Source: Xanthostigma xanthostigma
Lineage: Eukaryota > Arthropoda > Insecta > Raphidioptera > Raphidiidae
DNA length: 64,000 bases
Assembly: GCA_963575645.1 (NCBI GenBank)
Contig: OY754470.1
Coordinates: 46,841,201-46,905,200 of the forward strand
Reading direction: 5' to 3'
Notes under the pieces: generated by a model
Databases searched by the model: none
The model's input: the letters and a program-made list of their open reading frames with translations, nothing else
Told to the model about the DNA's origin: nothing
Part shown: positions 4,071-59,736 of the stretch, in pieces
Position numbering within the stretch: position 1 is the first letter of the stretch
Layout of the letters: each line of letters begins with the position of its first letter
Program-made: the position numbers and the translations under genes

Positions 4071-4129
4071 TTAAGGAAGGTTTTGGTTGAGGATCATAAA
4101 TAAGCTTTACCAATGTTGCGATAGCGGCC

Positions 4130-4160
4130 AACGTTTCGAAAAATTTATTTTCATCTTCAG
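4130..4160 (-). ncRNA. Minimal hammerhead-ribozyme-like motif
   Basis: Read on the minus strand: CTGAAGA, one extra T, GAAAA paired with TTTTC (helix II), then GAAAC, then GTT. This fits C3-A9, G12-A14, A15.1-C15.2, G16.2-U16.1 and H17. Helix III would be only the palindrome ACGU, so an active fold would need two molecules. The extra base between A9 and helix II departs from the canonical form. Not shown to cleave. Confidence 0.5.
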
Positions 4161-4183
4161 GGCCTTTTGACCAGCTTGAGGCC

Positions 4184-4214
4184 CTGACGATGAAAATACA
4201 TTTTTCGAAACGTT
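4184..4214 (+). ncRNA. Minimal hammerhead-ribozyme-like motif
   Basis: Plus-strand partner in the right arm: CTGACGA (4184-4190), one extra T, a GAAAA/TTTTC helix II, GAAAC (4207-4211) and GTT (4212-4214). All core positions match the hammerhead consensus apart from the extra base before helix II. Helix III is the self-complementary ACGU. Confidence 0.5.
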
Positions 4215-4274
4215 GGCCACTAGCGTAACATTGGTAAAGCTTATTTATGGTACTCAACCAACACCTTCCTTCAT

Positions 4275-4555
4275 CGTATAATTTATATTATCCTCCAACA
4301 GTTAGGTTATACTCAGAGTAGCCAACTTAGGAGTTTTCCCCCTAAATTTGGGGGACGAAATGTAGAATGGAATTTTTTTAGAGCCCTAATATTTTCAGAT
4401 TCAATTTTAGGGACACAAAAAAAACTTTATCAGACATTAGATGAATTACAAAACCGACTCATTGTTAAATGTCTGTTTACTAAGTATAGTAACTTAAGTC
4501 CTAATAATGTAGTATTGTAGTACAATCATGTGGAGCTCGGTCTCCTTCAATAGCA
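4275..4555. other. No feature recognised
   Basis: Nothing recognised. Confidence 0.3.
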
Positions 4556-4691
4556 GAATACCGCCGTCAAAGCGGCAAACTTTATTGAACATGAGTTAAC
4601 AAAGAATTCACATTGTTGTAACTGTAGAACAATAATTTTTTTTATTGTTAACTTATCTTCAACAAAGTTTGCCGCTTTGACTACGGTATTC
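4556..4691. mobile_element. Short MITE-like inverted repeat
   Basis: Ends of about 32 bp are inverted copies: AATACCGCCGTCAAAGCGG plus CAAACTTT on the left, and the complement of AATACCG(TA)GTCAAAGCGG on the right. The total is about 135 bp and noncoding. No certain target duplication. Confidence 0.55.
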
Positions 4692-5166
4692 ATTAATTGA
4701 TTTTAACGAAATTTGGACCACATGTTGAAATTCATCACCGCACGAAGCCTATTTAAAATGGGCCCAATCGGGCCACTTTAAGGGTAGTTTTTAGGGGTTG
4801 AAAAATGTTTTTTGGGCCAAAAATACCGAAAAATTTCTCGGAATCGTTTCAAAATTGAAATTTAACCCTTTAATATTGATTAAAATATCCAACCAAAATT
4901 TTAATAAAATCGGCCTGACAGAACCGGACTTACAAATTTTATGAAAACACAAGTTTGCGAATAGGGATTCACTGAAAGGTGTATTTAATTAGATGCAGAT
5001 GCTGGATTGAAATTAAGTAAATAAATATTATTTTAAGGGATGTATTAAGAGGTTAAATTTTTTATTTTGTCCAAAAAGAAAGTTTAAGTTTACAGTATAA
5101 AGCCACACTATACCTATATTAGCTAATATACTATATATTGTCGGCAGGGTTTCGCACTGCGACCCG
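4692..5166 (-). repeat. Repeat family C copy
   Basis: Reverse-orientation copy of a noncoding repeat also found at 44755-45475 and 47643-48490. It begins (minus strand) ACTCGGGTCGCAGTGCGAAA then CCCTGCCGACAATAT, includes GTCCGGTTCTGTCAGGCCGA and the CAACCCCTAAAAACTACCC block, and ends near CCACATGTTGAAATTCATCA. Superfamily not recognised. Confidence 0.65.
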
Positions 5167-5219
5167 AGTTTTATTATTATTATAAACAAGTTCTGACTTA
5201 GAAGAAACGTAACTCTTTA

Positions 5220-5961
5220 GATCTACCCGGGTGAATTCTGGTTAAAAATCGAGTATAGTTTAATATACTATGAAAAAACAACTTGCGTACAATATCACAA
5301 ACGAAAAGTTATACCTAATCTTAGGATCAGCCTCAATGGCGCTTTACTCACTATTGCAACATATTGTAAGTTTTTAGGCTTAATGTTAGATCAACAACTA
5401 TCTTTCGAACTTCATGTAGATCACGTATGTAAAAAGTTAAATAGTGCATATTATATCCTAAAAAATGTTAAGAGAATTTTAACGATTAAACAACTAATTA
5501 ACATATACTATGCATTAGTTTATTCTAACATAAGCTATGATATTGTTTTATGGGGTCGTTCTCGTCATTCCCATAGAGTTTTAATTTTGCAAAAACGAAT
5601 TATTAGACTAATTTTTAATATGGATTACAGACAGACCTGTAAAAATAGTTTTATAGAAAATAAGATTTTAACTGTACCATGTTTATATTTGTATAAATTA
5701 CTGGTAGGTGTTAAAAAGAATAGCCACAGATACACTGTGAACTCAGATGTTCATAATTATAATACGAGAGATGGCTCGATGCTCCGTATTGAAAAATATA
5801 AATCAACTTTTTTTACATCTTCTCCTCAGTGTTCTGGGACTATTTTTTTTAACAGGCTGCCAGTAATGTTAAGACAAGAGAGAAATTTTAAAATTTTCTG
5901 CAAAAATTTGAAAGAATTTTTAATTACTAAATGTTTTTATAGTGTAAACGATTTTGTGTAA
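5220..5961 (+). pseudogene. Reverse transcriptase C-terminal region (LINE, Jockey-like)
   Basis: The frame is open from just after a TAG at about 5217 and ends in TAA. The first ATG is at 5383, but the frame runs on upstream without one, so this is a 5'-truncated ORF rather than a small gene. Landmarks are CKFLGLMLDQQLSF, YYALVYSNISYDIVLWG, the LQKRIIRLI block, VHNYNTRDGSM, and a closing TKCFYSVNDFV. These match the post-catalytic 'thumb' and C-terminus of insect Jockey-type LINE reverse transcriptases. The catalytic YADD region is missing, so it cannot be active. Confidence 0.75.
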
Positions 5962-6070
5962 CTATATTAATTAATAGAATTGTAAATCTTTCTTGTATTT
6001 TATTGTACTGACAATTCTTATCTGTAAAATATGTACAGCTTCTAAGATGAAAATATACTATACTATACTA
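5220..6070 (+). mobile_element. 5'-truncated non-LTR retrotransposon
   Basis: Consists of the last part of a reverse-transcriptase ORF (open to 5961), a short 3' UTR and a simple tail of ATACT repeats at about 6050-6070. 5' truncation and a simple-sequence tail are typical of LINE insertions. The tail abuts a SINE at 6073. Confidence 0.7.
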
Positions 6071-6072
6071 TA

Positions 6073-6490
6073 GTAATAATAAAAATGCGTTTAACGTCCG
6101 TTTCTCCACTTTATGTCATAACAGATGCCATTACTATTTTCCATCTATCACACTTCCCGCTATTTTCTACCTTTTTTTTTTAACTTCCACTTAATAGCAC
6201 TGGGCGAATGAAGGAATTTTAGGACATTAGGATAAGGTAAGCAAATTTGAGCATAGGAGTTCGACAGGTAATCGGCCATCGCCTTAAATAAGGAACCATC
6301 TCGATATTTATCTGGAATTATTGAGGGAAACCATGGAAAACCTCGACAAGTTGGCCAGTACAGGAATTACCGTTTCTCGGCGAGAGGCAGCAGGAAAAAG
6401 TCCCAACCACATCTGCCTCCGTCAGGATTCGAACCCAGTACCTCCCGAATGCGAGTCTAGTGCTCTCACCGCTACGCCACCCCGCTCGGT
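6073..6490 (-). mobile_element. tRNA-derived SINE
   Basis: About 418 bp on the minus strand. It starts ACCGAGCGGGGTGGCGTAGC, with a pol III A box (GTGGCGTAGCGGTGAGAG, complement at 6463-6480) and an intact B box (GGTTCGAATCC, complement at 6425-6435). It then has a SINE-specific body ending in CGGACGTTAAACGC and an ATT-type tail. A second copy is at 53852-54270. It lies directly after the LINE tail; a short TATAGT on both sides may be the target duplication. Confidence 0.8.
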
Positions 6491-7094
6491 GTATAGTTTA
6501 ATATTTCCATAATAATAACGCATGCGTTTGTAAATAAATTAACTTAAAATTCGTGTGTAAATGAGACAGTTATTTGCTCGTGCAATGATTAATGTTTAAC
6601 AGCGGTCTCGACTGACTTGTAATATAAAGTAACACAAGTCAGCGGACGTTAAATGTGTGAAGCGAGCAATCATACACGCGCCTCTTATTAAATGGTTACC
6701 CGGAGGAGGGCGGGTTCCCGTCCATTCATTCTCGTGACACCACGCCGACTGCACTGCCACGTTCTGTTTGTATGCTCATTTAAACTACCTCCCGCTGACC
6801 GAAACAATAAATTCAAGTCGAATTCTCTTCGTTGACGAGCGACGCGAGAACAGATATTGGTTTCGGAGTTTCAAAGGGCAGTTGTCAAGCTCAGTTGATA
6901 ATAAAAGGAATGGAGGAAGTTGGATATTATTAAATAAACAGCAAGAAAGTCAATCAAACTACGCCCTATGCTGCGCGTTTTATAAAACACCTCTCTCTGC
7001 TTTCACTGCCTGTTCAGTATCAAAATTAATAAAGATATTGTTTGAGGTGTCTGCGTTTGCTAGTTTTTCTTTCGGTTTCGACCTAGTTTCGGCA
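6491..7094. other. No gene recognised
   Basis: Unique-looking sequence with a somewhat GC-richer stretch at 6640-6860. A 142-codon ORF (6768-7196) runs into a repeat and shows no protein similarity I recognise. Confidence 0.35.
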
Positions 7095-7260
7095 AAAGCG
7101 AAGCAGAGCCTCAGAGGGCATCATGCACTCAGTGCAATGATATCATACTTTCGGCCAGTGTTGTGTATACTATTTTTCCTTATGCTTCCGTCGTAAGTAC
7201 GCTTATTAAATACATTAATTAATTACATAAAAACACAGATGAATTCCAAGCAAGCAGTGT
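7095..7260 (+). repeat. Repeat family A fragment
   Basis: Contains CATACTTTCGGCCAGTGTTG, a GTATACTATTTTTCC block, and the ACATAAAAACACAGATGAAT segment shared with 2035-2455 and 62430-62770. Confidence 0.5.
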
Positions 7261-7624
7261 GCCCTGATTGCCTACCTTGTGAATATATCTTCTGCCGTTC
7301 GGGTGCTATAGTAGCACAAAAACGATACCTTTCGCAGTGGGATAAAAATTTTATTGTATTCTAAGGAATATGGTAGGCCATCAATCGCGCTGTACATAGT
7401 CGCAATTCAAAACATTTTAACAGTTATTATGTAACATCAATAATGTCATGTCGGCCTGTTTCTAGACAAATAATAATTTACCTGGGATATGTACTGCACA
7501 CATGACGTAACTATGTACATAAAGTTGCCAGTTTGTCTTATTTTCTCACCAACTTATGTTGCCTTGCTAACGCGTTATTGCATTATTCCATTTCCCCCTC
7601 ACAATGTGCCAGCATAAACGAAAT

Positions 7625-7900
7625 AAAAAAAACCCTTTGCACTCCGGGAATGCCGGCGGAAGTGAAAACTTGAATATTAACGTCTTACAAATTTTCGATC
7701 AAAATGGTTTGTATCATAGATTGCATTTTTATGTACGATATTTCAACGCTAGATGTCTAACGTTGTATAAACAATTACTATAACTTAGAGAGTTTTCTCA
7801 CTCACCCAGCTCTTACTTTTCCTGACGCGAGTTTAACATTTTTAACCCATTACAAAGAAAGTGTACAACGCCGCTAAAGAAGTTTTCACTTCAAAAAAAA
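7625..7900 (-). repeat. Repeat family R1 copy
   Basis: On the minus strand the outer end carries TTGAAGTGAAAACTTC (complement near 7880) and TTTAGCGGCGTTGTACAC. The other end has AAGTTTTCACTTCCGCCGGC then a palindrome of the form GCACTCCC/GGGAGTGC near 7645. The same layout occurs at 22510-22755 and 63797-64000. Noncoding. The hairpin at one end suggests a nonautonomous element, class not settled. Confidence 0.5.
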
Positions 7901-8089
7901 AAAATAATAAATTGCTGTACCGATTGTTGGCAACTTCAAAATCGGTTTTGATATCTTTTTTGTTTATAATCGGTTCACCTATTTTAGAGAGAGGCGACTA
8001 CAAACAGAAAAAAATCTGGTTATTCTCTACAGGCATCATATAAAAATATCCAAAAATATAAAACCATTTGAAGACAAAAAGGTTAACTG

Positions 8090-8830: not shown

Positions 8831-9029
8831 AAAAAAGTTCGATGATATCTTACACACACTTTTAAATTTAGGAAGATGGAAAAACCCTTATGAAAAAGTC
8901 GAAGGTATTTCTTTATTCGCAATTAAGGAAGTTAAGCCGTTTTACAAAGCTAATGAAAAAAATCTGAAACAACATTTTTTTAATAGATTTTTTTATGAAA
9001 AAATTTTCTGTAAGAAATCCAAAATCATT

Positions 9030-9352
9030 AGGAGATTTTTTTTTATTGGTTGAAAGTCTCCTAATTAAATTGAAATAAATATTAAAATATGCGTAAGACA
9101 TCGATGCTTTACATAGTTAGTTTTCGGAACTGCTGACATTATTTGGTTATTTGCAAAAAATTAAAATGTACCGTTTGTATATAATATAATATAATATGTC
9201 AACCTAGCATGCAAACGGTACATTTTAATTTTTTGCAAATAACCAAATAATGTCAGCAGTTCCGAAAACTAACTATGTAAAGCATCGATGTCTTACGCAT
9301 ATTTTAATATTTTTTTTTCAATTTAATTAGGAGACTTTCAACCAATAAAAAA
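9030..9352. mobile_element. Near-perfect palindrome (fold-back element)
   Basis: Two arms of about 143 bp (9035-9178 and 9211-9352) are almost identical inverted copies around a roughly 32-bp TATAA-rich centre. Landmarks are GGTTGAAAGTCTCCTAATTA, AAGACATCGATGCTTTAC and CAGTTCCGAAAAC. Only a few indels separate the arms, so the inversion is recent or maintained by conversion. Noncoding. Confidence 0.75.
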
Positions 9353-9765
9353 AAAATATTAAACCTTAGCACTTTTCGATTATGAACTTTTATTCTTGAC
9401 AATTTTAACAATTTTAACTGAATTTTCAACTTTTTAATGATTTAATTATAATTTTTATTACTTCTAATTTCTTTTTTTAATTATTTACTGCAAAAAATAT
9501 GTAAAATACAGATATTTACATAAGTTTATTTTTCCTAACCTACTTTGTACAAAAAATTCAAAAGTTAGTCCATTAAATGAAATACTAAAATAATTAATTA
9601 ATAATAAAAAAAATGATTTATTGATGCCTTTATGACAATAATTTATTGATATCATCGACTTATAACCTTTTGTACAAATTTATTATGGAAAAGTTCCCAT
9701 TTAGAATTTGACTTACTTTTGATTGGGACTGTAACGCATCAACTTCCTTAAATATGTACTTTTTC
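9353..9765. other. No feature recognised
   Basis: Very AT-rich sequence with homopolymer runs. Confidence 0.4.
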
Positions 9766-10498: not shown

Positions 10499-10880
10499 AA
10501 ATGTGTTACGAGAACGCATTACAGAAGTGAAACTTCTCTGTGGACAAGTGGAAAAAAAAGAGAAGCAAAACGGACAAGTGGAAAAAAGATAAGGAGTCCA
10601 ATGGATAAGTAGAAAAAAGAAAAGAAGTTCAATGAACGAGTGGAGAAAAAGTAAGAATAAGAAGAAAAGATTCATAATTAATTTTTAACATTTAACTGAT
10701 AGTTTCACGTTCAGATATTTCGTCTGTACAAGTTAATCTGAACGTGAAACTATGAGTTAAATGATAAAAATTAATTATGAATCTTTTCTTCCTACTCTTA
10801 CTTTTTTTTCCACTTGTCCATTGGCCTTCTTATCTTTTTTCTACTTGTCCATTTTGCTTCTCTTAAATAAAAATTAATTA
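10499..10880. repeat. Palindrome built of short GGACAAGTGGAAAA repeats
   Basis: The left arm holds four or five diverged repeats of GGACAAGTGGAAAAAAG, then AAGAATAAGAAGAAAAGATT and CATAATTAATTTTTA. The right arm repeats these inverted (CCACTTGTCCATT units). The centre is a tight inverted pair, AGTTTCACGTTCAGAT / ATCTGAACGTGAAACT. It appears inserted into the family F copy at 10385-11290. Confidence 0.6.
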
Positions 10881-12616: not shown

Positions 12617-13306
12617 CTAGCGATCCCGCCCGGTTTCGCCCGGGTGCAAAAGAACAAATGGGGAAGGGAGGGACATGAGTACGTACATTCATCTTAGTTT
12701 ACCGAGATGAATGTTTTTTGTCGTTAAAAAGCAGTAATTATACTTTTTAGTATAGCTTTTAAATCAATAATATTACTGGAATTAATAAAATATAATAAAT
12801 ATTTAATTGAAAACACTGTAGGAAAATTATTTTTATATAGGTCCCTATAGTTATAACAGTTTTCAAATGAGTTACTAATTAGATTTATTTAATTTTAATT
12901 AGTCGTAAATAAAATTAAAATAAATTTAAATGTAAGAAAGTAATGTAGAAAATTAAAAAAAAAATAAAAATCTATTCGCCCAACATGGGGCTCGAACCCA
13001 CGACCCTGATATCAGAAGTCACATACTCTACCGACTGAGCTATTCGGGGTTCTGATGCGCTAGGCTAATATTGGTATATTTAGTTACGGCATTTCACTTA
13101 TAAATAGAAGCTCATTTTTGAGATACATTTTGCAACATTTTTCATTTATGCTCCGCTCGTATTGGTCGTAGCGTGATATTATATAGCCTATAGCCTTCCT
13201 CGATAAATGGACTATCCAACAAAAAAAAATCAATTTGAACCAGTAGTTCATGAGATTTGCGTTCAAACAAACAAACAAACTCTTCAGCTTTATATATTAG
13301 TATAGA
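12617..13306 (-). mobile_element. Helitron-like nonautonomous element with insert
   Basis: On the minus strand it begins A|TCTATACTAATATATAAAGC and ends with a CCCGGGCGAAACCGGG hairpin about 8 nt before CTAG|T. This meets the Helitron rules: 5' TC, 3' hairpin then CTRR, insertion between A and T, no target duplication. Compared with the relative at 43956-44313, about 390 bp of extra DNA replaces the middle and contains a tRNA-Lys-like sequence. No Rep/helicase coding. Confidence 0.55.
12978..13049 (-). pseudogene. tRNA-Lys-like sequence
   Basis: On the minus strand: CCCCGAATAGCTCAGTCGGT, then AGAGTATGTGACTTCTGATA, TCAGGGTCGTGGGTTCGAG and CCCCATGTTGGGC. The A box (TAGCTCAGTCGGTAGAG) and B box (GGTTCGAGCCC) are intact and the T arm is perfect. 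The anticodon stem has two mismatches and the triplet at the anticodon position is TCT, so it is a decayed tRNA-Lys-type gene or SINE head. T runs follow downstream. Confidence 0.6.
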
Positions 13307-15442: not shown

Positions 15443-15454
15443 TTGTAGGGCAGC

Positions 15455-15682
15455 AAATAAATAAAATTGTCGACCGATTTTTCTCAGACCAATAGGTATA
15501 TTGACGAATTTATGAAAAATTAATTTTTATATTTCTGAAGAAGATCCAAATCCGGATCGAAACGTCATCTTGTGTTATATTGATTTGTAATTTTATTATT
15601 TTTTGTCAATATATTGGTCTGAGAAAAATTGCTCGACAATTTTATTTATTTGAAGAGTTCTATTCAGACGTTAATCAAAGAT
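15455..15682 (+). mobile_element. Hammerhead-bearing palindromic element with target duplication
   Basis: A 228-bp insertion splitting a family A repeat. TTGTAGGGCAGC lies on both sides (15443-15454 and 15683-15694); with microhomology the true duplication is 8-12 bp. It opens AAATAAATAAAATTGTCGAC. Inverted arms end ATATTGAC...GTCAATATATTGG, with a single-copy tail GAAGAGTTCTATTCAGACGT at the right. A hammerhead-like core sits between the arms. Relatives are 56292-56636 and the truncated 28304-28570. The arrangement resembles nonautonomous Penelope-like retroelements; no protein is encoded. Confidence 0.65.
15535..15566 (+). ncRNA. Minimal hammerhead-ribozyme-like motif
   Basis: CTGAAGA (15535-15541), one extra A, helix II GATCC/GGATC with an AAATCC loop, GAAAC (15559-15563), then GTC (15564-15566). 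Every conserved core base is present. H17 is C, the commonest cleavage-site base. Helix III is the self-complementary ACGU, implying a dimeric fold. Confidence 0.55.
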
Positions 15683-15694
15683 TTGTAGGGCAGC

Positions 15695-26688: not shown

Positions 26689-26956
26689 AATACTTCTTGT
26701 GAAGCGTTATAAAAAAGAAAGACCAAAATCAACAGTTTTTTTAAACATGCTTATTGGAAATTGGACTCATGGCAAAGAGCTCGAATATGTAAAATAGTGA
26801 ATATACCTAATCTTTTATACAACACGAAAAAAATTATATAGTGTTTATAAATTATATCAAGGCATATATTATAATATATACAATATTATTAAAAATATTT
26901 GTTAGTTTTGAATATTAGTGATAATTGTTAGTAGAAGTTTTGTTCCAAAATATGTA

Positions 26957-27156
26957 TTGAAGGAGATTTATTTGGTTGAGGAACAATTGAAAATAAGCTT
27001 TACCAGTGTATCGCTTGTGGCCAACGTTTCGAAAAATATATTTTCCCTGATTGAGGCCCTGATGATGAAAATATATTTTTCGAAACGTTGGCCACAAGCG
27101 ATACACTGGTAAAGCTTATTTTCAATTGTTCCTCAACCAAATAAATCTCCTTCAAT
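26957..27156. mobile_element. Palindromic element with hammerhead-like core
   Basis: Nearly perfect 85-bp arms (ATTGAAGGAGATTTATTTGG, TTGAGGAACAATTG, AAAATAAGCTTTACC) around a GAGGCCCTGATGATG centre. Same family as 4071-4274. The right arm keeps a complete core (27059-27089); the left arm has lost the CUGANGA box, leaving TCAGGGAAAATATA before GAAAC. Confidence 0.7.
27059..27089 (+). ncRNA. Minimal hammerhead-ribozyme-like motif
   Basis: CTGATGA (27059-27065), the most canonical form of the box, one extra T, helix II GAAAA/TTTTC, GAAAC (27082-27086) and GTT. Helix III is ACGU only. Confidence 0.5.
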
Positions 27157-27525
27157 TAGTGATAATATCTCACTTCAGTATTTTTATTAATTTAGTTTAA
27201 CATTTGGTGAATAAGTGACTAAAAAAATGTCGCCTAAGGAGTAGAAGACAAATAAATGTTCTTTCATTTTTATTTTTATTATTTCGTCGCTATTAGATAT
27301 TTTGATATAATTTATAAATCAAACATTAAATTATTTTTAATATAAAATCTAAAATTTCGGTAATCCAATTTTTTTGAAAATTCCGACTATTTTCATTTTA
27401 TATATTATATACAAGAGTTTTGATACGGTAGCTATGGAAATAATTAATCATTACAGAAAATCGTTCCACATAAAACGCAACAAAGGGGGTTCGTGTGCAT
27501 TTTCGTAGAACGATTTACTCTATTG

Positions 27526-28570: not shown

Positions 28571-28798
28571 TCGCCCACAAACAAACCGGCTGATGTTGGT
28601 CAACCCCGCTCACACGTGCAACTCGCCGACCACAGACTGAACAGACGTACAAATAATCGAAAGTACTTTTTCTCATTCGAAAATAATTTAAAAAAATCAT
28701 ATTTTATGTTGTTATCGTTCCTCTTATGTGAATTTGGTAATAAATAATAACGGGAAATGGAACTTTATTCTGTACAATATATTTTTATTTTTATTGCC

Positions 28799-28828
28799 AA
28801 CGTTTCGTCTTAATTAAGACTTCCTCAG
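28799..28828 (-). ncRNA. Minimal hammerhead-ribozyme-like motif
   Basis: Minus strand: CTGAGGA, extra A, helix II GTCTT/AAGAC with AATT loop, GAAAC, GTT. All core positions fit. Helix III is ACGU. Confidence 0.5.
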
Positions 28829-29196
28829 GGCTCTATAATTGACAGATAAAATACATGTTTAAAATTAATAACATGATATTAAAAATCTGTATAATGTTTA
28901 CTTAATGAACATGACATTATTTCGACATTTTTAAAAAATTTTAAACGTTTTTTGACATTTTAAATTTTCAGACGTTTTTTAATATTTTAAAAATTTTAAA
29001 ATTGTTTTGTGAGAAAAAAAAATAAAAAAACCATGGATTTTCTAAAAATAAATAATAGTGACTGGTTACAGAGAAAGACGAATGTGTAATAATCTACAAT
29101 TTTGGTAATATACAGATTTTTAATATCATGTTATTAATTTTAAATTTTAATTCCTTATTATATCAATCATGTATTTTATCTGTCAATTATAGAGCC

Positions 29197-29227
29197 CTGA
29201 GGAAGTCTTAAGTTTAGACGAAACGTT
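29197..29227 (+). ncRNA. Minimal hammerhead-ribozyme-like motif
   Basis: Plus strand: CTGAGGA (29197-29203), extra A, helix II GTCT/AGAC with a TAAGTTT loop, GAAAC (29220-29224), GTT. Pairs as an inverted partner with 28799-28828. The loop differs while the stem is intact. Confidence 0.5.
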
Positions 29228-29294
29228 GGCAATAAAAATAAAAATATATTGTACAGAATAAAGTTCCATTTCCCGTTATTATTTATTATCAAAT

Positions 29295-30250
<956 letters not shown>

Positions 30251-30284: not shown

Positions 30285-30808
30285 TGAAAAGAACTCCGCA
30301 CAAACCTTGTGGGATTTGGTTCTCGGTTAAATTGATCGAAAATGGTTTTGTTTTATAGTTTAAAGGTCACTAAGAAAAAGGCGCTTGGCCTAGAAACCAA
30401 TAGATTTTTAGCTACAGATATGTTTAGCGTGATTTTAGATATAGAGATATCCATTGAATTCAAAAACATGTTCCATGTTCAACTTTTGTGCTTTTTTTTA
30501 GAAATAGACAAATAGTCGAAAACTAGATAATGTTCGAAGGTGTCACCCTGCATAAAATAATGTCATAATCGGATTCAGCGCACTCGAAAACATATTTCTA
30601 GAGCTCAGGATTCTTTAAGATTGTGAATTCAATGGATATTCCTGTATCTAAATTCCGCTAAACATATCTGTAGCCAAAAATCTATTGGTTTTTCGGCTAT
30701 GCTCCCATGAACACTTTCCCTTAGTGACCTTTAAACTATAAAATAAAACCATTTTCGATCAATTTAACCGAGAACCAAATCCCATAAGATTTGTGCGGGG
30801 TTCTTTCT
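30285..30808. mobile_element. Fold-back family F, full palindrome
   Basis: Arms of about 230 bp: AACTCCGCACAAACCTTGTG, CTCGGTTAAATTGATCGAAA, a TAGTTTAAAGGTCACTAAG block, CCAATAGATTTTTAGCTACA, inverted at the right, around a CACCCTGCATAAAATAATG centre. Copies are at 40215-40700 and, broken, at 10385-11290. Confidence 0.7.
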
Positions 30809-35679: not shown

Positions 35680-36070
35680 ACCGTATTTATTAAATTATTT
35701 ATTTAATATAAGCGCTTTCGACATTCAAACAGTCATCTTCAAATATTATTTTATAATAGTTAATTAAAATTATTATTCAGTGAAAATATTATAACTCAAC
35801 AATGAATTTTTGAATTATCTACTAGGGTTACTTACATGAATTACACAAATCATAATTAAGCAACAATTATTTATTCAAATATCAATTTTTTCTTTTTTTT
35901 TTTATTTATGTAATTCATATAAGTAACCCTAATAATTCAAAAATTTATTTTTTAGTTTTTTATATTTTCATTGAATTATAATTATAAATTAACTATTATA
36001 AAATAATATTTGAAGATGACTGTTTGAATGTCGAAAGCGCTTAGGTATATTAAATAAATAATTTGCAATA
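35680..36070. mobile_element. Palindromic element with AGCGCT-type hammerhead-like cores
   Basis: Arms of about 170 bp: AAGCGCTTTCGACATTCAAA, CAGTCATCTTCAAATATTAT, a CTAGGGTTACTTACATGAAT block, inverted at the right. Each arm carries TTGAAGA, helix II GAC/GTC, GAAA and AGCGCTT (35710-35742 minus, 36010-36042 plus). Helix III is the palindrome AGCGCU and H17 is U. C3 is replaced by U in both arms, so activity is doubtful. Confidence 0.6.
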
Positions 36071-40214: not shown

Positions 40215-40700
40215 AAAAGAACTCCGCACAAACCTTATGGGATATGGTTTTCGGTTAAATTGATCGAAAATGGTTTTATTTTATAGTTCAAGGGTCACTA
40301 AGAAAAAGTGTCCATGGGCGCATAGCCTAAAAACTAATAGATTTTTAGCTACAGATATTAGCGAAATTTTCGATATAGGGATATCCGTTGAATTCACAAT
40401 CTTAAAAAATCCTAAGCTCTAAAAATATGTTTTCGAGTGCACTGAATCCAAATATCACATTATTATTTTATACAAGGGGTGACACCTTCCAAGATTACCT
40501 AGTGTTCGACTATTTTTCTATTTCTAAAAAAAAGCACAAAATTTTAGCATGGAACATGTTTGTGAATTCAATGGATATATCTAAAATCTCGCTAAACTAT
40601 TGGTTTTTAGGCTATGCGCTCATGAACACTTTTTCTTAGTGACCTTTAAAACTATAAAATAAAACCATTTTCGATCAATATAATCGAGGGGTCCTTTTTG
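40215..40700. mobile_element. Fold-back family F copy
   Basis: AAAAGAACTCCGCACAAACC and its inverted counterpart, with CATGGGCGCATAGCCTAAAA inside the arms. The right end is decayed. Confidence 0.65.
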
Positions 40701-43955: not shown

Positions 43956-44313
43956 ATAGCGTTTCCGCCCGGTTTTACCCGGGTGCAAAAGAACGAATAG
44001 GGGGGCGGCACATAACTAGGTACGTACTTTCATTTTTGTTTATCGAGATGAATGTTGTGTAAAAATTTCATGATGATCGGAGTTACCGTGCAAAAGTTTT
44101 TGTCGGACGGACAAATTTTGAGTTACATTTTGCAACATTTTTCATTGATGCTCCGCTCCTATTAGTCGTATCGTGATATTATATAGTCTATAGCCTTCCT
44201 CGATAAATGAACTATCCAACAAAAAATGCTTTTTTTAATTCGAATCAGTAGTTTCTGAGATTAGCGCGTTCAATCAAACAAACAAACTCTTCAGCTTTAT
44301 ACATTAGTATAGA
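43956..44313 (-). mobile_element. Helitron-like nonautonomous element
   Basis: Minus strand: starts TCTATACTAATGTATAAAGC, contains a GGATAGTTCATTTATCGAGG block, and ends CCCGGGTAAAACCGGGCGGA with a degraded CTAG. It is the uninterrupted relative of 12617-13306. Confidence 0.55.
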
Positions 44314-44554
44314 TAGAAGATAGGTACAAAAAATATAATCAGAAAACAGTGATGAAAACTGAAAATTCGCTGTAGGAATTTTGAAAACTGTTCTATTATA
44401 GACTAAAATACGATTTTATTTATTTGATTTAATTGAGCTAACGTCTGTATAATTCATTAAAAAAACAACTCTCACTGTATGTGGATTTTGTAATCCTTAT
44501 ACCTATATATAAAGACACCAGACAACTATATTAAATTATATGTAAAATATTTTA

Positions 44555-44697
44555 TAACAAAATGTTGCAAAATGTAACTCAAAATTTGTCTGTCCGACAA
44601 AAACTTTTGAACGGCGACTGCGATCATCATGAAATTTGGACACAACATTCATCTCGGTAAACTAAGATAAACGTGCATATTCATGCGGGACCGCTAG
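44555..44697 (+). mobile_element. Helitron-like 3' fragment
   Basis: TGCAAAATGTAACTCAAAAT to GCGGGACCGCTAG|T. The 5' part is missing. Confidence 0.5.
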
Positions 44698-49252: not shown

Positions 49253-49945
49253 TAGCTTCCTATTAAATTTGGGGAGTATGGGAACTGTCCAAATAGTCTT
49301 ACTATACCAAATGTAGGTGAAATATCTTTCTCGAACTCAGTAAATTTTTTGGGTCTAACCATTGATAAACATTTAAATTGGAAAGATCAAATAGACAACA
49401 TAATTAAAAAAGCTAGTAAATATGTATATCTATTAAAATGTCTGGGAAAATTTATTCCAGAATCAGTTCTCGTCACTGTCTATACTGCCTTTGTTGAATC
49501 TATATTTTCATATGGGATTGTCTTCTGGGGCAACTCTGTAAATACTACTCAACTTTTTATTGTACAAAAGCGCTGCATCAGAGCAATATGTAAAGTTCCT
49601 CCGAGAACACACTGCCGCCCCCTTTTTAAAACTCTAAAGATCTTAACATTTCATGACCTTTATATACTAGAATGTGCAAGTTTTGTCAAATTTAATTTTA
49701 ATCTTTTCTCTAGAAATACTACTAGTCACACATACAGCACAAGAACACGAACAAACTTTAGACTAGACTACACGTCATTAACTACTGTGAACAAAGGTCC
49801 TGTTAATGCTATGTTGAAAATTTTCAATAAGTTGCCCCCTGAAATCAAAAATCTACCGGCTACAAAATTTAAACAAAAATTAAAATCTATTTTATTACAG
49901 ACAAATTTTTATTCTGTTGAGAAATTTTTTAATCATAAATTTTAA
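49253..49945 (+). pseudogene. Reverse transcriptase C-terminal region (LINE, Jockey-like)
   Basis: Frame open from after a TAG near 49250 to TAA at 49945 without a stop. An in-frame ATG is at 49349, but the upstream codons also fit the family (NFLGLTIDKHLNWKDQI). Then come VYTAFVESIFSYGIVFWGNS, LFIVQKRCIRAICKV, RTHCRPLFKTLKILTFHDLY, HTYSTRTRTNFRL and an end in NFYSVEKFFNHKF. It is the post-catalytic tail of an insect Jockey-type reverse transcriptase; the active site is missing. The intact frame suggests a fairly young insertion. Confidence 0.8.
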
Positions 49946-52063: not shown

Positions 52064-53294
52064 GCTAAGTCTCCTTTGCTTGCAAGTACTCTATTGCTAA
52101 GTTTGAACACACTTTGTTAGGCATAATATTATATTTAAGGGACTCTCGACTCTTGCCAACAGCAATATATTTAATTGTCTCATGTTTATCTCGTTGAACA
52201 AACAATTTGGAGCGTGCGTTTACCTAAACGATAATATTTACTTACATAAACAGTATCTTTACTTTACACCTAAATAAAATGAATTGTTTACTGTCTATGT
52301 TTTATGGCGAACGCATATATAATAATATCACCCACGTTTCTTAATTCTTGGAAAAACTTTATTTTCAAAAAGCAAAATTTTATGTTTTATATCTACAAAA
52401 GCATGTACCTTTGATGTTTTTCTATTTTAAATATTTATTCTTTTCTTAAATTACACTTACGTTAATATGTTAATTTGTGTGTAATTTAATAGAAGAAAAA
52501 TACTCTTTCATAAAGTACACAGGTACTCGAATTTTGAAGTAAATTAAAACCTTTTTACGCAGGGTTATGCAACATTGTTATCGTATGTTGTAAAAAATAA
52601 TTAAAGACAACTGTAGCTAGTCTTCGTCTACGAGTTTGTTGTCGGTTTTGACGGGAAATTATTTTTAGTCCGCGAGTAATGGAATAAAAATTACCCCGTA
52701 CTTTGGGCTTGCCGTCACTTTTCTTTTCCTGGACACTGTCTTCATTTTGAAGGTGTCCGCAGGGATTTTTCGAATGTATCCTTGGTAAATGTGTATGTAC
52801 GGAGTTTATGAAAATTATTATGTTCACGTTGATTATTTTAATGAATGTTTCTTTAATCTATTCGAAGTTTCGTAGGCGTCTGGGTCATACATTGCAATTA
52901 CACCGAAAGAATGCAATAAAAGGTCATTTATTTACAGTTCGGGACGCAAGTGGATTTTTGACCAATTAGTTCTAGTTTGTAAAATAATATTATTGACAAC
53001 CCTAACACCTCTTTTTTATTCATGTGTTCGTTTGTTTGATGTAGGAGACGAAGTTGATGATCTTGAGGCACTACCAAGCATTGAACAAGCTCTGCATGCA
53101 GCAAATTTATTAGACATTTTTTTGTAACGAAACGATCCTACTATATCCTAAGATTTGAATAAAATTCAACGAAAGATACAATTAAAATATTGGCATTGTA
53201 AAAACAACAAAGTTAATAAATAATAATAATTTTGATATATACATTTTTTTTCACATAATATGTTAATATTAAAACTACTTATTTGTAAAATTAT
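52064..53294. other. No gene recognised
   Basis: AT-rich. A 90-codon minus ORF at 52555-52827 shows no domain. Confidence 0.35.
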
Positions 53295-53826
53295 ACAGAT
53301 TGTATCAAATCAAAACGGTTCATAGAACATTCTGTGTGTAAGACAGAGACGATATTATATAAAGCACTAAAGCAGTAAGTAAGAATGAGATAAATGATCG
53401 CAAATAGTTACTGTGGTTATACAATCTGATAGTATCGTCTTTGCTTTCTACAGTAAAAATCACAATTTTATCAAATGTCAGTATTCATTAGTGAAATTAT
53501 TGATAAAATGGCTATTTATTATACTCGATTAGGATATTGTTTGGCAGAACGTGGAGGTTTTTTTGAACATTTAATAAATTAATTATTAAAAGTATTGTTA
53601 AAACTTTTGTACCAGATATAAATAATAATACGAATTAATATTACGGTTTAGTTGTTTTAATTGATAAACTGGTAAAAAGATTTACAGTGTACGTAATTAT
53701 TTATTTACGTAACCACAGTAACTATTAGCGATCATTTATCTCATTCTTACTTACTGCTTTATATATCGTCTCTGTCTCACACACAGAATGTTCTATGGAC
53801 CGTTTTGATTTGATACAATCTGTATA
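53295..53826. mobile_element. Fold-back element
   Basis: Arms of about 125 bp: ACAGATTGTATCAAATCAAA, ACATTCTGTGTGTAAGACAG, TAAGAATGAGATAAATGATC, ATAGTTACTGTGGTTA, inverted at 53695-53826. Confidence 0.7.
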
Positions 53827-53851
53827 CTGTTTTCCTTTATTCTCTGTTTAA

Positions 53852-55160: not shown

Positions 55161-56278
55161 GGTTCTGTAATACCTCTTATGTGCAAAAAGTAAAATTTGC
55201 AGGAAAGGCCAAAAAGTGGTTATTTCAGCAATGGATGGTAAGAACTAGCAATTTCAGAGGTATATTACTAATTCGTACTTATCTTCACTATACATGTTTA
55301 ATTAAGACGAAATATTTTCTTAAAAAATATTTAACGTTAATTTCGGATTTATTGGCACATGGGAGGAATTATTTGATACAACTTTTCACATAAGAGTTAC
55401 TTTCCCTTGTTGGTTACTGTAAAATTAATTTGGAGGTATTACTAGTGTATAGAGCTCCGTTTCCTGAATCTTTTCATCTAAAAAACGCAAAATCTGCCAA
55501 CTATCCACATAAGAGCTATTATAGAGCCAACGACGATATGCCAAAAACGACGTTTAGTTTTTTTTTTTCGATGTTCTTCCCTTTTTTTGGCATCGATTGT
55601 TAGTTGTGTGGGAAATCCACCTATTTCGAACCGCTGTATCTACATTTTGAAACTGACCTGGTGATGACATCAAATCTAATGAAGTACTATTACCCAATAT
55701 AATTTAAATTCGTAGCTATTTTTGTAAAAGGCTATCAAAACTTATTGAAATGTGAACGTGATCGGTTATTGTAATAAATATTGTAATTGTTTGATTTGAG
55801 AATTGTGTTTAATCATTTTACCTGATTTTGAAATTCCTACAGTTGCCATAATATATCAATCGATGTTAACATCGATATTTTTATTTCGATCCCTACCTTG
55901 TGGTAAAATTGAGCTATTTCAAACGAGTTCGTGTTTGTAGGAATAATTGAGTTTTCTCTCAATGTTTAATGGTATCTGTATTCTGTTAGCTGTCAACTCG
56001 TCATAATATAGCATATCACTTGTAGGTATATAAACACTAGGTTAAGTTCGTACTCTCTATATAGGCATGCATTGAAACCCTGGAACCCGGACCGGCAGGC
56101 GGTGCGTTTCCCATACAGAATTATGTACGCCCGAGATGATAATAATAAGGCGCCTCTCATACAGTTGACGTATCTCTATTATTCTACCCATTGCAACACA
56201 GGCAAGCGGAAATGCAGAAAATTTATATTAATATATGCGTCTAAGAACAGTGACGGCTTGTCAATTATTATTATTAAT
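55161..56278. other. No gene recognised
   Basis: A GC-richer patch at 56065-56160 and several 70-codon ORFs. GAGCCAACGACGATATGCC (55520) is an imperfect inverted partner of the string near 55152-55165, hinting at an old fold-back. Confidence 0.3.
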
Positions 56279-56291
56279 AATAAATATTATT

Positions 56292-56636
56292 CAAATAAAT
56301 AAAATTATCATTTTTCAGACTATATATTGACAAAAAAAATAGTAAAATTATAAAGCAATATTTCACTGGATGACGTTTCGATCCTGATTTGGATCTTCAG
56401 AAATAATCTAAAAATATAAAAATTAATTTTTATATCTATTAGATAATATAAATAGATATACTAATTAATTTTTATATTTTATAGATTATTTCTGAAGAAG
56501 ATCCAAATCCGGATCGAAACCTCATCTAGTGAAATATTGATTTACCTATAATTTTATTATTTGTTTGTCAATATATAGTCTGAAAAAAATTTATTTATAT
56601 TTGAAGATTTGTATTCAGACGTTCATCAAAGATTTG
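56292..56636 (+). mobile_element. Hammerhead-bearing element with 13-bp target duplication
   Basis: 345 bp flanked by AATAAATATTATT (56279-56291 and 56637-56649). Opens CAAATAAATAAAATTATC, closes GTTCATCAAAGATTTG. The plus core (56492-56523) has CTGAAGA, helix II GATCC/GGATC and GAAAC but CTC in place of GTC. The minus core (56372-56400) keeps GAAACGTC but has lost three bases before helix II. A longer relative of 15455-15682. Confidence 0.65.
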
Positions 56637-56649
56637 AATAAATATTATT

Positions 56650-56927
56650 AATAATAATAATAATAAAATTTGTTTATTGCGTTGACAAAAATGTGTGGAA
56701 TAAGTCATAAAATTACAAATTACAACGAGGTAGAAAAAAATTCCTGGATGGAATAGAATGTGTCCTTAATTAAGAGACGCTTGACGGTCCGTTTGAAACA
56801 AAATAGGCTATTAATAGATTTTACATTAGCCGGTTATTGATTGTACAGTTTTATAGGCATAGAATTGAGGCATCGATAGCTGGTAGAAATATTATTTTAT
56901 TTTAATTTTTGATATCATAGATTTAAA
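56650..56927. other. ATA repeat and unremarkable sequence
   Basis: AATAAT repeat at 56649-56668; otherwise nothing recognised. Confidence 0.4.
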
Positions 56928-57083
56928 TTTCCCACAAAAAAGGTCCTTAGTACTAAACCCGTGAATTCATTATTTTCAAAGATATATTCGTTTAAACATT
57001 CCCATAAAAATCGGATTTCGTGTAAACGAGCGTATCTTTGAAAATATTGGCGGGTTTAGTACTAAGGAACTTTTTCGTGGGAA
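56928..57083. repeat. Inverted repeat
   Basis: ATTTCCCACAAAAAAGGTCC, TTAGTACTAAACCC, TTTTCAAAGATA and a CGTTTAAAC block, inverted at 57015-57083. Arms about 68 bp. Confidence 0.65.
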
Positions 57084-57216
57084 ATTCAATTCTCTCCAAA
57101 TTGCTGCTGTCAAAAATTAAAAAAAAAAATGTTTTCTGCCAGCAATCCATGTTTGAGTAAAAACGTCGTTTTTCCCATGTTAATAAAATGGGAAACAAAC
57201 TCGGTTTGCGCCGTTC

Positions 57217-57262
57217 ACAGGTACAAACCGGGGGAAACAATTCCCCCCGGTATTGTACCTGT
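57217..57262. ncRNA. Strong 46-nt hairpin
   Basis: ACAGGTACAA, one unpaired A, CCGGGGG; loop region GAAACAATT; then CCCCCCGG, TAT and TGTACCTGT. About 18-19 pairs with a tiny loop, much GC-richer than the surroundings. Could be a transcribed hairpin, a MITE end or chance palindrome. Shorter than a typical pre-miRNA. Confidence 0.4.
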
Positions 57263-58270
57263 CGGCAACAGCAAGGAAATTATTAAAATTCCCTCAAAAA
57301 AATAATGATAAAACAATAACACGATAAATACTTTTTTAGTGGTACTTATCGTCAGATTAATTAAAAAAATAATGTATGCCTTTATGATTCTAATCTATTG
57401 TTTTACTTATTTTTATTCTTTTGTATTATTTTTCTGTCGTCTGTACTATTTTATTTTACCTGTTATTGGACTTCGGTCTGTTGGTATTTGAATAAATAAT
57501 AATAATAATAATAGCTCTAACAGCCGAAAAGAATAAATAAAAAAAAATATTATTTTAAACTTTTCTCATGTCAGATGCAAGCATCAGTTCATATTAATAC
57601 ACATCACGTACTGCAAAGGAACTGATCGCCATAAATTTTCAACAAAAATAACACAGACGTAAAATCCTCCGTTAAAAAAAAAACAGCAAAAAAAGAATAA
57701 TGTTTTGCGTACATCCCATATGATGATAATGTAACCCAATATCATCAGAGACACTAATCCTAATAACGTCACGTTCTACAAGTCAATTTAGTGCTCATAT
57801 TGGCGGGGTTGTTATTTCTCCGCCACCATCGCTCCTGTAGGTACGTACGTTATAGTTGGGACGCCGGATCGGGACAGGGACAATCCATAAGACAAGGAAC
57901 ACATTCTTTCGTCTCACACACACACATACAAACACACAAGTGAGGTGTATTGTGTGATGCAGAGATGCACCTGACGTGTGCGTCTCACACTCCCTCATCT
58001 CACTATACATAGTTTTTGCGGATGGGAAAACACGAGTCTCATCCAAGCAAACAGCTTTGAGGTTATACGTAAAAACACGAATGAGAGCTGTTCACGACTA
58101 TATCAGATATATTAATACGCTAAGGTTAAGAATGTTTGCCTCCTTTTTTAGAAAAAATCTCACAATTTCTCCAGATAAATTATATATCATTTTACAGATA
58201 ATTGCTTGCTCTACTGACATCGTCAACTAAAAAATGTATTATTGCTGTTGTTTTTGTAAATTAATTAAAA
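57263..58270. other. No gene recognised
   Basis: CA-rich simple sequence at 57918-57945, AATAAT repeat at 57493-57512, and a family-A-like AGGTTATACGTAAAAACACG at 58050. Confidence 0.35.
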
Positions 58271-58565
58271 TACAGCAACGCTGAACAACGTCTGCCATCT
58301 GACGGCTTTATTTTGAAACAACGTCAACACTTCGATCTGTCATCTGACCTTCATATTGTAATACAACAGACACAATACTGTATACTGCCATCTGACGGCT
58401 TTAATTTTGAAACAGCGAGCAACGCTGAACAACGTCACAGCAATGCTGCATGATGCCATCTGACGGCTTAGCTCAACGATTTTGCTACTTGCGTCTCTAT
58501 ATGACAATTTTAGTAAAATATTTCTTCGATCTGTCATCTGAGCTTCATATTGTACCTAATACAAC
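58271..58565. repeat. Imperfect tandem repeats with GCCATCTGACGGCTT
   Basis: GCCATCTGACGGCTT occurs three times (about 58293, 58387, 58453). CAACGCTGAACAACGTC occurs twice and CTTCGATCTGTCATCTGA twice. Units of mixed order and length. Confidence 0.7.
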
Positions 58566-58779
58566 AAAAAGAAAAACGTTATAAGCAGTGTGCAAAATTA
58601 GAAATGAATTGAATACCTGCAATCATATTTAAAAAAATAATTTTGTAAAGTGATAATTATTATACTTATTTAGTGCGAATAATTCGTACAGGTCACACTA
58701 GTTAGCTAAAATGTAATATATAGATATGACATCTAAACAACAGTTGAAAGGTGATTTTTTCAAGTACCTTGCACGAAAT

Positions 58780-59380
58780 GGTGCAAAAGAACGACCGAAA
58801 GACTAGATTTTTCGCTATAAAAAAACGGCCAAATGCGAGTCAAACTCGCGAACCGAGTGTTCCGTGCAAACTTGTAGAGTTCGTCCATCACGGGAATCGA
58901 GTCGCGAAGATTTTTCCCGCTTAGCCGTTGGAAAACTGTTGTACCCATACATCGACAGATCTCGCGGTCAGTTTTCCAACTTAGCGTGTAATTGCAATGA
59001 GTTCAGATGAACTACTGAACTGTATTTACCTCGTGGCTATATCTGACAGCTTAGTTGTCGTACCGCGATGTATGCGAAAGTTCTCATATTGTGCTATATA
59101 AAACGCACAGGTAACGGACGCTTGTTTTGTATTAGAACGGGTACTGTGTACGTGCGTAGCATGTTGTTGCGGTTTAAAAACATTTTTTTTGTGTAACTTC
59201 AAATTTGCGCTTTTTGGATTTTTTCCTTTGCTTGTGCTTTAAGACATTGCTTCTTGTCAAATTTCATGATTCTAGGTCAACGGGATTTGATTCCCAAGAG
59301 GCTTGACAGACAGACGGACAACAATGTGATCCTATAAGGGTTTCTTTTTTCCTTTTGAGGTACGGTACCCTAATTAGTGT
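58780..59380 (+). repeat. Interspersed lepidopteran-type repeat
   Basis: Contains ACGGCCAAATGCGAGTCAAA then CTCGCG at the start and GACAGACAGACGGACAACAA, a TCCTATAAGGGTTTC block, and GGTACGGTACCCTAA at the end. This combination is common in moth and butterfly introns. No coding. Confidence 0.5.
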
Positions 59381-59443
59381 CAAAATTTCAAAGCAATCGG
59401 TGAAGATCTTTCGGAGATTTAAGAACATTTTTATTTAATAATA

Positions 59444-59736
59444 AAATTATACGGGATACAAGGCTAAAATATTAAAACAATTTTTATTTACTAGAACATT
59501 ATTTATTGGTCAACGTTTCGGCAGTATTTCTTGCCTGCTTCAGGACCATAAAAATCTTGAGTAAAAAGTCACAAAATTAAAAACATAAATTAATAATTTA
59601 AATGTTTTTAATTTTGTAACTTTTCACTAAAGATTTTTATGGTCCTGAAGAAGCCAAGAAATACTGCCGAAACTTTGACCAATAAATAATGTTTTAATAT
59701 TTTAGCTTTGTATCTCGTATAATTTTACAATGTGTC
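59444..59736. mobile_element. Palindromic element with two decayed hammerhead-like cores
   Basis: Arms of about 110 bp: GATACAAGGCTAAAATATTA, ATTATTTATTGGTCAACGTT, TCGGCAGTATTTCTTG, inverted at the right. The minus core (59512-59543) has CTGAAGC instead of CTGANGA, with GAAACGTT intact. The plus core (59645-59676) has CTGAAGA intact but GAAACTTT. Each has lost a different essential base. Confidence 0.65.

What the first reader, a model, noticed from the sequence alone, without database searches (positions are those of the whole stretch)
4071..59736. A window-wide set of palindromic elements each carrying hammerhead-ribozyme-like cores
At least seven fold-backs or fragments (4071-4274, 15455-15682, 26957-27156, 28731-29294, 35680-36070, 56292-56636, 59444-59736) contain CUGANGA, a perfect short helix II, GAAAC and GUH, often once per strand in opposite arms. 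Apart from the two pairs of sisters, the arms of different elements are unrelated, yet the core is retained and helix II sequences covary (GAAAA/UUUUC, GAUCC/GGAUC, GUCUU/AAGAC). That argues for selection on an RNA fold rather than common descent of the DNA. Minimal hammerheads with palindromic helix III are known in Penelope-like retroelements. What looks unusual is the inverted-pair arrangement in short noncoding fold-backs, and a consistent extra base between A9 and helix II.
Basis: partly seen in the sequence, partly recalled or inferred. Interest (0 to 1): 0.78.

Follow-up and report, generated by a model that had tools for sequence, protein, structure and literature searches.

The report
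Penelope-element ends carrying hammerhead ribozymes
The fold-backs are short, gene-less copies of Penelope-type jumping genes whose ends carry a motif of a known kind of small self-cutting RNA; the motif occurs thousands of times in this animal genome, and the copies record in unusual detail how such elements insert.

Summary
Five of the seven elements carry at least one intact hammerhead-like core; two (35.7 kb, 59.5 kb) are degenerate. In 11 of 12 window copies one extra base follows A9; the 12th is unreadable. In the window's own genome (623 Mb) the extra-base pattern occurs 10,264 times (reversed control: 1), the canonical spacing 124 times. Helix II co-varies; helix III is a palindrome in each family seen.

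The elements are insertions of Penelope-like retroelement (PLE) ends: two pseudo-LTRs joined head-to-head, with 12-13-bp target duplications (5 of 7) and a one-sided tail. GIY-YIG loci in the same genome carry such cores (22 of 30 fetched); one 803-aa RT/GIY-YIG ORF lies between two sense cores. Hammerheads in PLE ends and inverted pseudo-LTRs with a tail are in print: the kind is known.

Newer is what a young family shows: the tail is on exactly one side in 16 of 16 two-armed copies, and 0 of 32 arms start at the predicted cleavage site. In a sister family the two arms of 3 of 5 copies carry different shared variants. This favours two templates primed from the two ends of one cut over single-template snap-back. 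Ribozyme activity is untested.

The parts
4019..4288 (.). Element E4: head-to-head pseudo-LTR pair with 12-bp target duplication TATAATTTATAT (4019-4030, 4277-4288) and 30-nt tail on the left (4031-4060)
4184..4218 (+). E4 hammerhead-like core, plus strand: CTGACGA-T-helix II 5 bp-GAAACGTT, stem I GGCC/GGCC
4126..4160 (-). E4 hammerhead-like core, minus strand
15443..15694 (.). Element E15: left arm 5'-truncated; 12-bp target duplication TTGTAGGGCAGC (15443-15454, 15683-15694); tail on the right (15653-15682)
15535..15566 (+). E15 core, helix II GATCC/GGATC, H17 = C
26914..27166 (.). Element E27: head-to-head pair, 90-bp arms 100% complementary; 12-bp target duplication ATTAGTGATAAT (26914-26925, 27155-27166); tail on the left (26926-26955)
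   Evidence: L217 is this copy
27059..27093 (+). E27 core; the left arm starts inside helix II and lacks the 5' half
28731..29295 (.). Element E28: head-to-head pair with partly unpaired centre; no target duplication or tail found
29197..29227 (+). E28 core, plus strand, helix II GTCT/AGAC
28799..28828 (-). E28 core, minus strand, helix II GTCTT/AAGAC
35688..36070 (.). Element E35: head-to-head pair, no target duplication found; degenerate cores (C3 to U) in both arms at 36010+ and 35742-, helix III AGCGCT
56279..56649 (.). Element E56 (sister of E15): 13-bp target duplication AATAAATATTATT (56279-56291, 56637-56649) chosen over a 15-bp match in the same AT-rich repeat, so less certain; tail on the right (about 56606-56636)
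56492..56523 (+). E56 core, plus strand (CCT for CGT in helix III); the minus-strand copy at 56400 has a 3-nt deletion
59427..59755 (.). Element E59: head-to-head pair, 12-bp target duplication ATTTTTATTTAA (59427-59438, 59744-59755), short right extension (about 16 nt)
59512..59543 (-). E59 core, minus strand, A9 to C; the plus-strand copy at 59645 has a broken helix II and CTT for CGT

Best explanation
The elements are small, ORF-less insertions of the ends (pseudo-LTRs) of several Penelope-like retroelement families. Each source pseudo-LTR carries a minimal hammerhead-type motif: core, short helix II, a loopless palindromic helix III that can close only between two RNAs or two copies, and one extra base after A9. 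Shown by sequence: the motif, its covariation, the palindromes, head-to-head orientation, target duplications, one-sided tails, and the same kind of core in RT/GIY-YIG elements of the genome. Inferred (about 0.6): the GIY-YIG enzyme cuts both strands about 12 bp apart; each DNA end primes reverse transcription of a separate RNA, one at the inner start site and one at the outer (leaving the tail); the two 5'-truncated cDNAs are joined 5' to 5'. The hammerhead belongs to the source RNA and does not define the inserted ends. Cleavage itself is inferred from the literature, not shown.
For: PLE link: the PF01541 search of the own genome gives 37 matches; 22 of 30 fetched loci hold a core, each in the one-extra-base register (L184/L186 and L201/L202 show the same cores, and most of the 22 are one family). 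L205 has an 803-aa ORF with RVT_1 (3.1e-11) and GIY-YIG (1.2e-5) between two cores of its own sense (5451-, 2732-), plus a head-to-head partial copy. Motif: 10,264 genomic hits against 1 for the reversed pattern; canonical spacing 124, control 1. Of the first 100 listed, 84 have helix II of at least 4 bp (the first pair is fixed by the pattern), against 6 of 165 matches to the same kind of pattern in prokaryote and viral collections. Helix III AGCGCT 525 hits, one-base-off AGGGCT 4; ATGTACAT and ACTAGT in GIY-YIG loci. Architecture: direct repeat of at least 12 bp around 5 of 7 core-bearing and 0 of 24 other inverted repeats, Fisher p = 1.2e-4; 21 of 23 neighbouring hit pairs within 1.5 kb head-to-head. 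Insertion: E27 family, tail match of 22-32 nt on one side and 1-7 nt on the other in 16 of 16 two-armed copies. Of its 16 junctions, 8 have 0-3 nt overlap, 5 an insert of 1-5 nt, 3 one of 12-19 nt. Arms of E4, L247 and L248 carry different loop-II variants, both present in other copies. PAc protein cleaves and extends both strands and starts RT at two sites bounding the tail (PMC11167929, passages).
Against: Rfam's models give no hammerhead hit in the window or on two short stretches. The window elements are too short to hold a PLE ORF, and no complete autonomous partner was found for their exact families; two searches aimed at that did not complete. The nearest is E28, 79% identical over 58 bp to sequence near GIY-YIG loci L176 and L177. 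8 of 30 GIY-YIG loci showed no core. E28 and E35 show no target duplication. Of 15 further two-core elements, 6 show a duplication of at least 11 bp with a one-sided tail, 3 a weaker one, 6 neither. Stem I is absent in the E15/E56 family. Three of 19 E27-family loci are one-armed, and 5 of 16 two-armed ones lack a 12-13-bp duplication at the ends. Shared variants between arms could in part be parallel mutation or gene conversion; only 5 copies were read and 2 show no loop-II difference. PMC3846280 prefers self-priming on an antisense template. No RNA data were available.
Confidence: 0.85

Rival explanations
1. Same elements, but the inverted pair forms by self-priming: one cDNA folds back on itself and copies its own strand (the model favoured for A. 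vaga Penelope).
For: Inverted repeats with palindromic junctions are read this way in PMC3846280 (sections 6 and 11 read). E27 itself has 100% complementary 90-nt arms, and 2 of 5 E4-family copies show no loop-II difference between arms.
Against: A simple fold-back copy should repeat the tail on both ends, yet 16 of 16 two-armed E27-family copies have it on one end only. Arms within E4, L247 and L248 carry different shared variants, and their core spacings differ (24, 32, 29 nt), so they are not copies of one two-armed parent. 8 of 16 junctions have only 0-3 nt overlap, as in end joining.
Confidence: 0.2
2. MITE-like or fold-back DNA transposons whose inverted repeats happen to contain the motif.
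For: Short, non-coding, long inverted repeats with target duplications; other inverted repeats without the core exist in the window.
Against: One-sided tail, 5'-truncated inner ends of varying position, one-armed copies, and the same kind of core in RT/GIY-YIG elements. In the window, direct repeats of at least 12 bp flank only core-bearing repeats.
Confidence: 0.04
3. Retrozyme-like elements that spread as hammerhead-processed circular RNAs, with a ribozyme on each strand.
For: Cores on both strands of E4 and E28, and damaged second cores in E35, E56 and E59; metazoan retrozymes coexist with PLEs (PMC7229834, PMC7761336, passages).
Against: Metazoan retrozymes are described as tandem repeats; here 21 of 23 neighbouring pairs are head-to-head. 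No arm begins at the predicted cut (0 of 32). In predicted fold-back transcripts GAAAC is paired in 10 of the 11 strands that hold one.
Confidence: 0.05
4. The motif is kept as part of the RNA or DNA recognised by the PLE protein, not as a ribozyme; catalysis is lost in this lineage (the extra base would mark that).
For: Extra base in nearly all genomic copies; mutating the PAc hammerhead did not affect insertion in vitro (PMC11167929, passage).
Against: Helix II pairing, palindromic helix III and, in four families, stem I are kept with changing sequence, as a hammerhead needs. The PAc motif cleaves when its protein is present (PMC11167929, passage).
Confidence: 0.2

Closest known systems
Minimal hammerheads of Penelope-like elements that cleave as dimers (Cervera and De la Pena 2014; Lunse, Weinberg and Breaker 2017; both known to me only through papers citing them)
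   Same: Type I core in PLE pseudo-LTRs, no stable helix III, palindromic helix III (passages in PMC7761336, PMC6466107, PMC6155905)
   Different: Here an extra base between A9 and helix II is near-universal; whether those papers show it could not be checked
Poseidon/PAc hammerhead of Anolis carolinensis (PMC11167929, passages)
   Same: Core in a PLE; ORF described as starting at the start of stem II, with the cut 26 nt downstream. In E4/E27 an ATG made of A9, the extra T and G10.1 lies 25 nt before the predicted cut
   Different: In E27 that ATG reads only 15 codons to a stop; cleavage not tested; A replaces T as the extra base in the E15/E56, E28 and E59 families
Adineta vaga Penelope families with inverted pseudo-LTRs (PMC3846280, sections 6 and 11 read)
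   Same: Head-to-head inverted pseudo-LTRs, target duplications of 8-10 bp, a 31-bp tail on one of them
   Different: Here the window elements are ORF-less minimal pairs, with 12-13-bp duplications in 5 of 7 and very many copies
Metazoan non-LTR retrozymes (PMC7229834, passages)
   Same: Short non-coding elements with type I hammerheads
   Different: Tandem and circRNA-based there; head-to-head here, ends not set by the ribozyme
Natural hammerheads with core insertions (PMC3088659, passages)
   Same: Extra core bases occur in natural hammerheads
   Different: There after A6, in GAAA or near C3; none after A9 in the passages seen

Membership tests
Penelope-like elements | RT plus GIY-YIG ORF | tested here: met
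   Met for relatives in the same genome that carry the same kind of core (L205, L207, L210); the window elements are too short to hold one (non-autonomous)
Penelope-like elements | Pseudo-LTRs in direct and/or inverted arrangement | tested here: met
   L205: cores in direct orientation around the ORF plus an inverted copy; window elements inverted
Penelope-like elements | Optional 30-40-nt tail on one copy | tested here: met
   30-31 nt in E4, E15, E27, E56; 16 nt in E59; none found in E28/E35; one side only in 16 of 16 two-armed E27-family copies
Penelope-like elements | Target duplications of variable length | tested here: met
   12-13 bp in 5 of 7 window elements; 12-13 bp in 11 of 16 two-armed E27-family copies, 8-9 or 15-16 in the rest, L227 not placed at its ends
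Hammerhead ribozyme (type I, minimal) | Conserved core C3-A9, G12-A14, A15.1-U16.1, H17 | tested here: met
   Intact in 7 copies of 5 elements; E35, E59 and E56 minus are degenerate; plus one extra base after A9
Hammerhead ribozyme (type I, minimal) | Helices I, II, III | tested here: inconclusive
   II met and covarying; III palindromic, needs a second strand; I met in four families (in E35 in one arm only), not in E15/E56
Hammerhead ribozyme (Rfam models) | Covariance-model score | tested here: not met
   No hammerhead family reported at E up to 10 in the window or in two short stretches
Hammerhead ribozyme (type I, minimal) | Self-cleavage | not testable with these tools
   No experiment or RNA data
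Retrozyme | Tandem repeats delimited by hammerhead cut sites | tested here: not met
   21 of 23 close pairs head-to-head; 0 of 32 arms start at the predicted cut
MITE / TIR DNA transposon | Symmetric terminal inverted repeats at both ends | tested here: not met
   One-sided tail in 16 of 16 and in the 5 window elements with a duplication

The most novel reading that the evidence does not exclude
PLE insertion is bidirectional: the two ends of one staggered GIY-YIG cut each prime reverse transcription of a different RNA, obligatorily one from the inner and one from the outer start site (for instance by the two subunits of a dimer), and the two cDNAs are end-joined. This would explain inverted pseudo-LTRs, the one-tail rule and ~12-bp duplications at once, without self-priming.
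Probability: 0.55. Interest if true: 0.72.

Novelty: new member of a known kind. Interest (0 to 1): 0.5.

Why it matters
How PLEs replicate, and why their copies so often sit as inverted pairs with a tail on one end only, is left open in the papers read. A genome with over ten thousand matches to the motif, and with 42 arms of one end family that are 100% identical over 105-106 bp at 39 places, makes that question directly testable by counting. The extra base after A9, if cleavage-competent, is a structural variant of a textbook ribozyme with a very large natural sample.

Tried and rejected
Rfam: weak miRNA-type hits on the fold-backs (MIR172 on E59, mir-186 on E4) and on another inverted repeat (MIR2118 at 10628) are far below gathering scores and probably follow from the hairpins. 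Pfam on 7 window ORFs gave only a homeodomain. MAFFT alignment A1 misplaces helix II partners by one column, so pairs were counted by script. Homology of the E4 and E27 tails: not significant (58 of 1000 shuffles as good). An inexact target duplication for E28 (TTGTTATCGTTC/TTGTCATCGTAC, 10 of 12 bases) was not accepted, since the arms are nearly identical. In one search, columns 108 and beyond are flank and columns 0-10 lie near the junction; neither was used. The arm ends came from a crude walk that left up to 73 nt unexplained in some copies; one search repeated them with a gapped alignment and gave the same 0 of 32. The E27-family loci are 20 of the 57 matches from 40 scored of 1647 candidates and are biased to full-length ends. 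The register count is partly forced, since the pattern fixes G-C as the first pair of the one-extra-base register. The 31 inverted repeats include two overlapping entries at 10.6 kb and one AT run counted twice. The 15 elements were chosen by me from the 21 head-to-head pairs.
Full report
1. The observation. All seven places are inverted repeats. A mechanical descriptor finds seven complete hammerhead-like cores in five of them, each with exactly one base between A9 and helix II; simulations of the window give 0.09 on average and at most 1 in 300 runs. The 35.7-kb and 59.5-kb elements carry recognisable but damaged cores (C3 to U in both arms; A9 to C in one arm, and a broken helix II with CTT for CGT in the other). 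In the 56.3-kb element one copy has a 3-nt deletion and the other CCT for CGT.

2. The window's genome. The search tool placed the window in a 623-Mb, 28-contig genome. It is probably an arthropod: a Pfam homeodomain exon in the window is a tool result, the rest is recalled resemblance. The pattern CTGANGANG...CGAAACGTT occurs 10,264 times there, its reversed control once. The version without the extra base occurs 124 times (control 1), and many of those listed read as G for the extra base. Among the first 100 listed hits, 84 have a helix II of at least 4 bp (72 with Watson-Crick pairs only) in the one-extra-base register, in 15 different 4-bp combinations, and none in the other two registers. 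The pattern fixes the first pair of that register, so the zero elsewhere is partly forced; the unforced tests are the window scan (7 against 0 and 0). As a baseline, 6 of 165 matches to this kind of pattern in prokaryote and viral collections have such a helix. Helix III is not simply ACGT: AGCGCT gives 525 hits, a one-letter non-palindrome 4, and GIY-YIG loci show ATGTACAT and ACTAGT. Self-complementarity without a loop means that helix III can only form between two strands. This is the dimer arrangement reported for PLE hammerheads (review passages in PMC7761336, PMC6466107, PMC6155905; the primary papers are not held).

3. Link to Penelope-like elements. A GIY-YIG search of the genome gave 37 matches (150 of 521 candidates scored). 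Of 30 fetched loci, 22 contain a core, each in the one-extra-base register, and 8 do not. L184/L186 and L201/L202 show the same cores, and most of the 22 belong to one family. In L205 an 803-aa ORF with RVT_1 and GIY-YIG is bracketed by two cores in its own sense, and a second, head-to-head partial copy lies beside it. That is the pseudo-LTR-ORF-pseudo-LTR plan. The window elements are too short for such an ORF and no complete partner of their families was found (two searches for one did not complete). E28 is 79% identical over 58 bp to sequence near two GIY-YIG loci, in the same sense about 540 nt downstream in L177 and in the opposite sense in L176.

4. Architecture. Of 31 inverted repeats spanning under 900 bp in the window, 7 hold a CTGANGA...GAAA string (one, at 44 kb, without a helix; E35 counts as lacking it). 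5 of these 7 have a flanking exact direct repeat of at least 12 bp, against 0 of 24 others (Fisher p = 1.2e-4). For single pairs of flanks a chance repeat of 12 bp or more has a frequency of 0.0015-0.0115. The extension between arm and duplication is on one side only: 30, 30, 30 and about 31 nt in E4, E15, E27 and E56, about 16 nt in E59. The E15 and E56 tails are homologous to each other, so the tail belongs to the element. This is the plan described for A. vaga Penelope: head-to-head inverted pseudo-LTRs, duplications of 8-10 bp, a 31-bp tail on one (PMC3846280, sections 6 and 11 read, other passages seen).

5. A young family as a natural experiment. The E27 end has 42 matches identical over 105-106 bp, at 39 places. 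Nineteen distinct loci were read: 16 two-armed and 3 one-armed. The tail is on exactly one side in 16 of 16 two-armed copies: a match of 22-32 nt on one side, 1-7 nt on the other. Duplications are 12-13 bp in 11 of 16; the others are 8, 9, 15 and 16 bp, and L227 has none placed at its ends (the stricter count has 8 of 16 at 12-13). None of 32 arms begins within 3 nt of the predicted cut (repeating with a gapped alignment). Of 16 junctions 8 have 0-3 nt overlap, 5 an insert of 1-5 nt and 3 one of 12-19 nt. In the sister family the loop-II letter differs between the two arms in E4, L247 and L248 (3 of 5 two-armed copies read), each state being present in other copies, and in E4 and L247 a second site differs in the same phase. 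The two cores are 24, 32 and 29 nt apart in these three, so they are not copies of one two-armed parent. Of 15 two-core elements from several families, chosen from 21 listed pairs, 6 show a duplication of at least 11 bp with a one-sided tail, 3 a weaker one of 8-9 bp, and 6 neither.

6. Mechanism. The purified PAc protein cleaves and extends both DNA strands and starts reverse transcription at two sites that bound the tail; hammerhead mutants did not change insertion (PMC11167929, passages). Put together with section 5, the simplest account is two-ended priming with two RNAs and one tail, then end joining. Single-template snap-back does not explain the one-tail rule or the shared variants. This step is inference, about 0.6. 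The hammerhead's own role, if any, lies in the source RNA: in predicted folds of fold-back transcripts (6 elements, both strands) GAAAC is paired in 10 of the 11 strands that hold one.

7. The extra base. In E4, E27 and E35 the extra T makes an ATG with A9 and G10.1; in E4/E27 the predicted cut is 25 nt on. [quoted passage not shown] In the E15/E56, E28 and E59 families the extra base is A, so it is not simply a start codon.

8. Standing. Hammerheads in PLE ends, dimeric helix III, inverted pseudo-LTRs and tails are in print. The two-ended reading was not found in the listings returned by searches of an open-licence library, nor in the passages read; that is weak evidence of absence.

Noticed in passing
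L001 11740-11775 (+): Phage-like metagenome contig with a hammerhead-like core, 7-bp helix II and GAAACGTTG, also with one base after A9; overlaps a reading frame, 1 of 165 pattern hits, may be chance.
   Followed up: partly
window 29654-30250 (-): Homeodomain exon (PF00046, E 1.2e-15), about 360 bp from element E28.
   Followed up: no
window 9036-9355, 30288-30806, 40251-40687, 44021-44679, 53287-53831, 61048-61403: Other long inverted repeats without a paired core and without long flanking direct repeats; parts of the 30.3-kb and 40.3-kb ones look alike by eye.
   Followed up: no
L229, sense strand upstream of the pseudo-LTR: An E27-family copy lies next to sequence resembling by eye the E15/E56 tail, which looks like a nested insertion.
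   Followed up: no
G000:C1:2021489-2021529 and similar: A subfamily with G as the extra base and a longer hairpin II (CTGAAGAGGGCCATGGCTTGAGCCGAGATGGCCGAAACGTT).
   Followed up: no
window 12977-13049 (-): tRNA-like match above Rfam's gathering score (34.3 bits against 29).
   Followed up: no
window 5221-5961 (+), 49256-49945 (+): Open frames that look by eye like the C-terminal part of LINE reverse transcriptases; no Pfam match.
   Followed up: no
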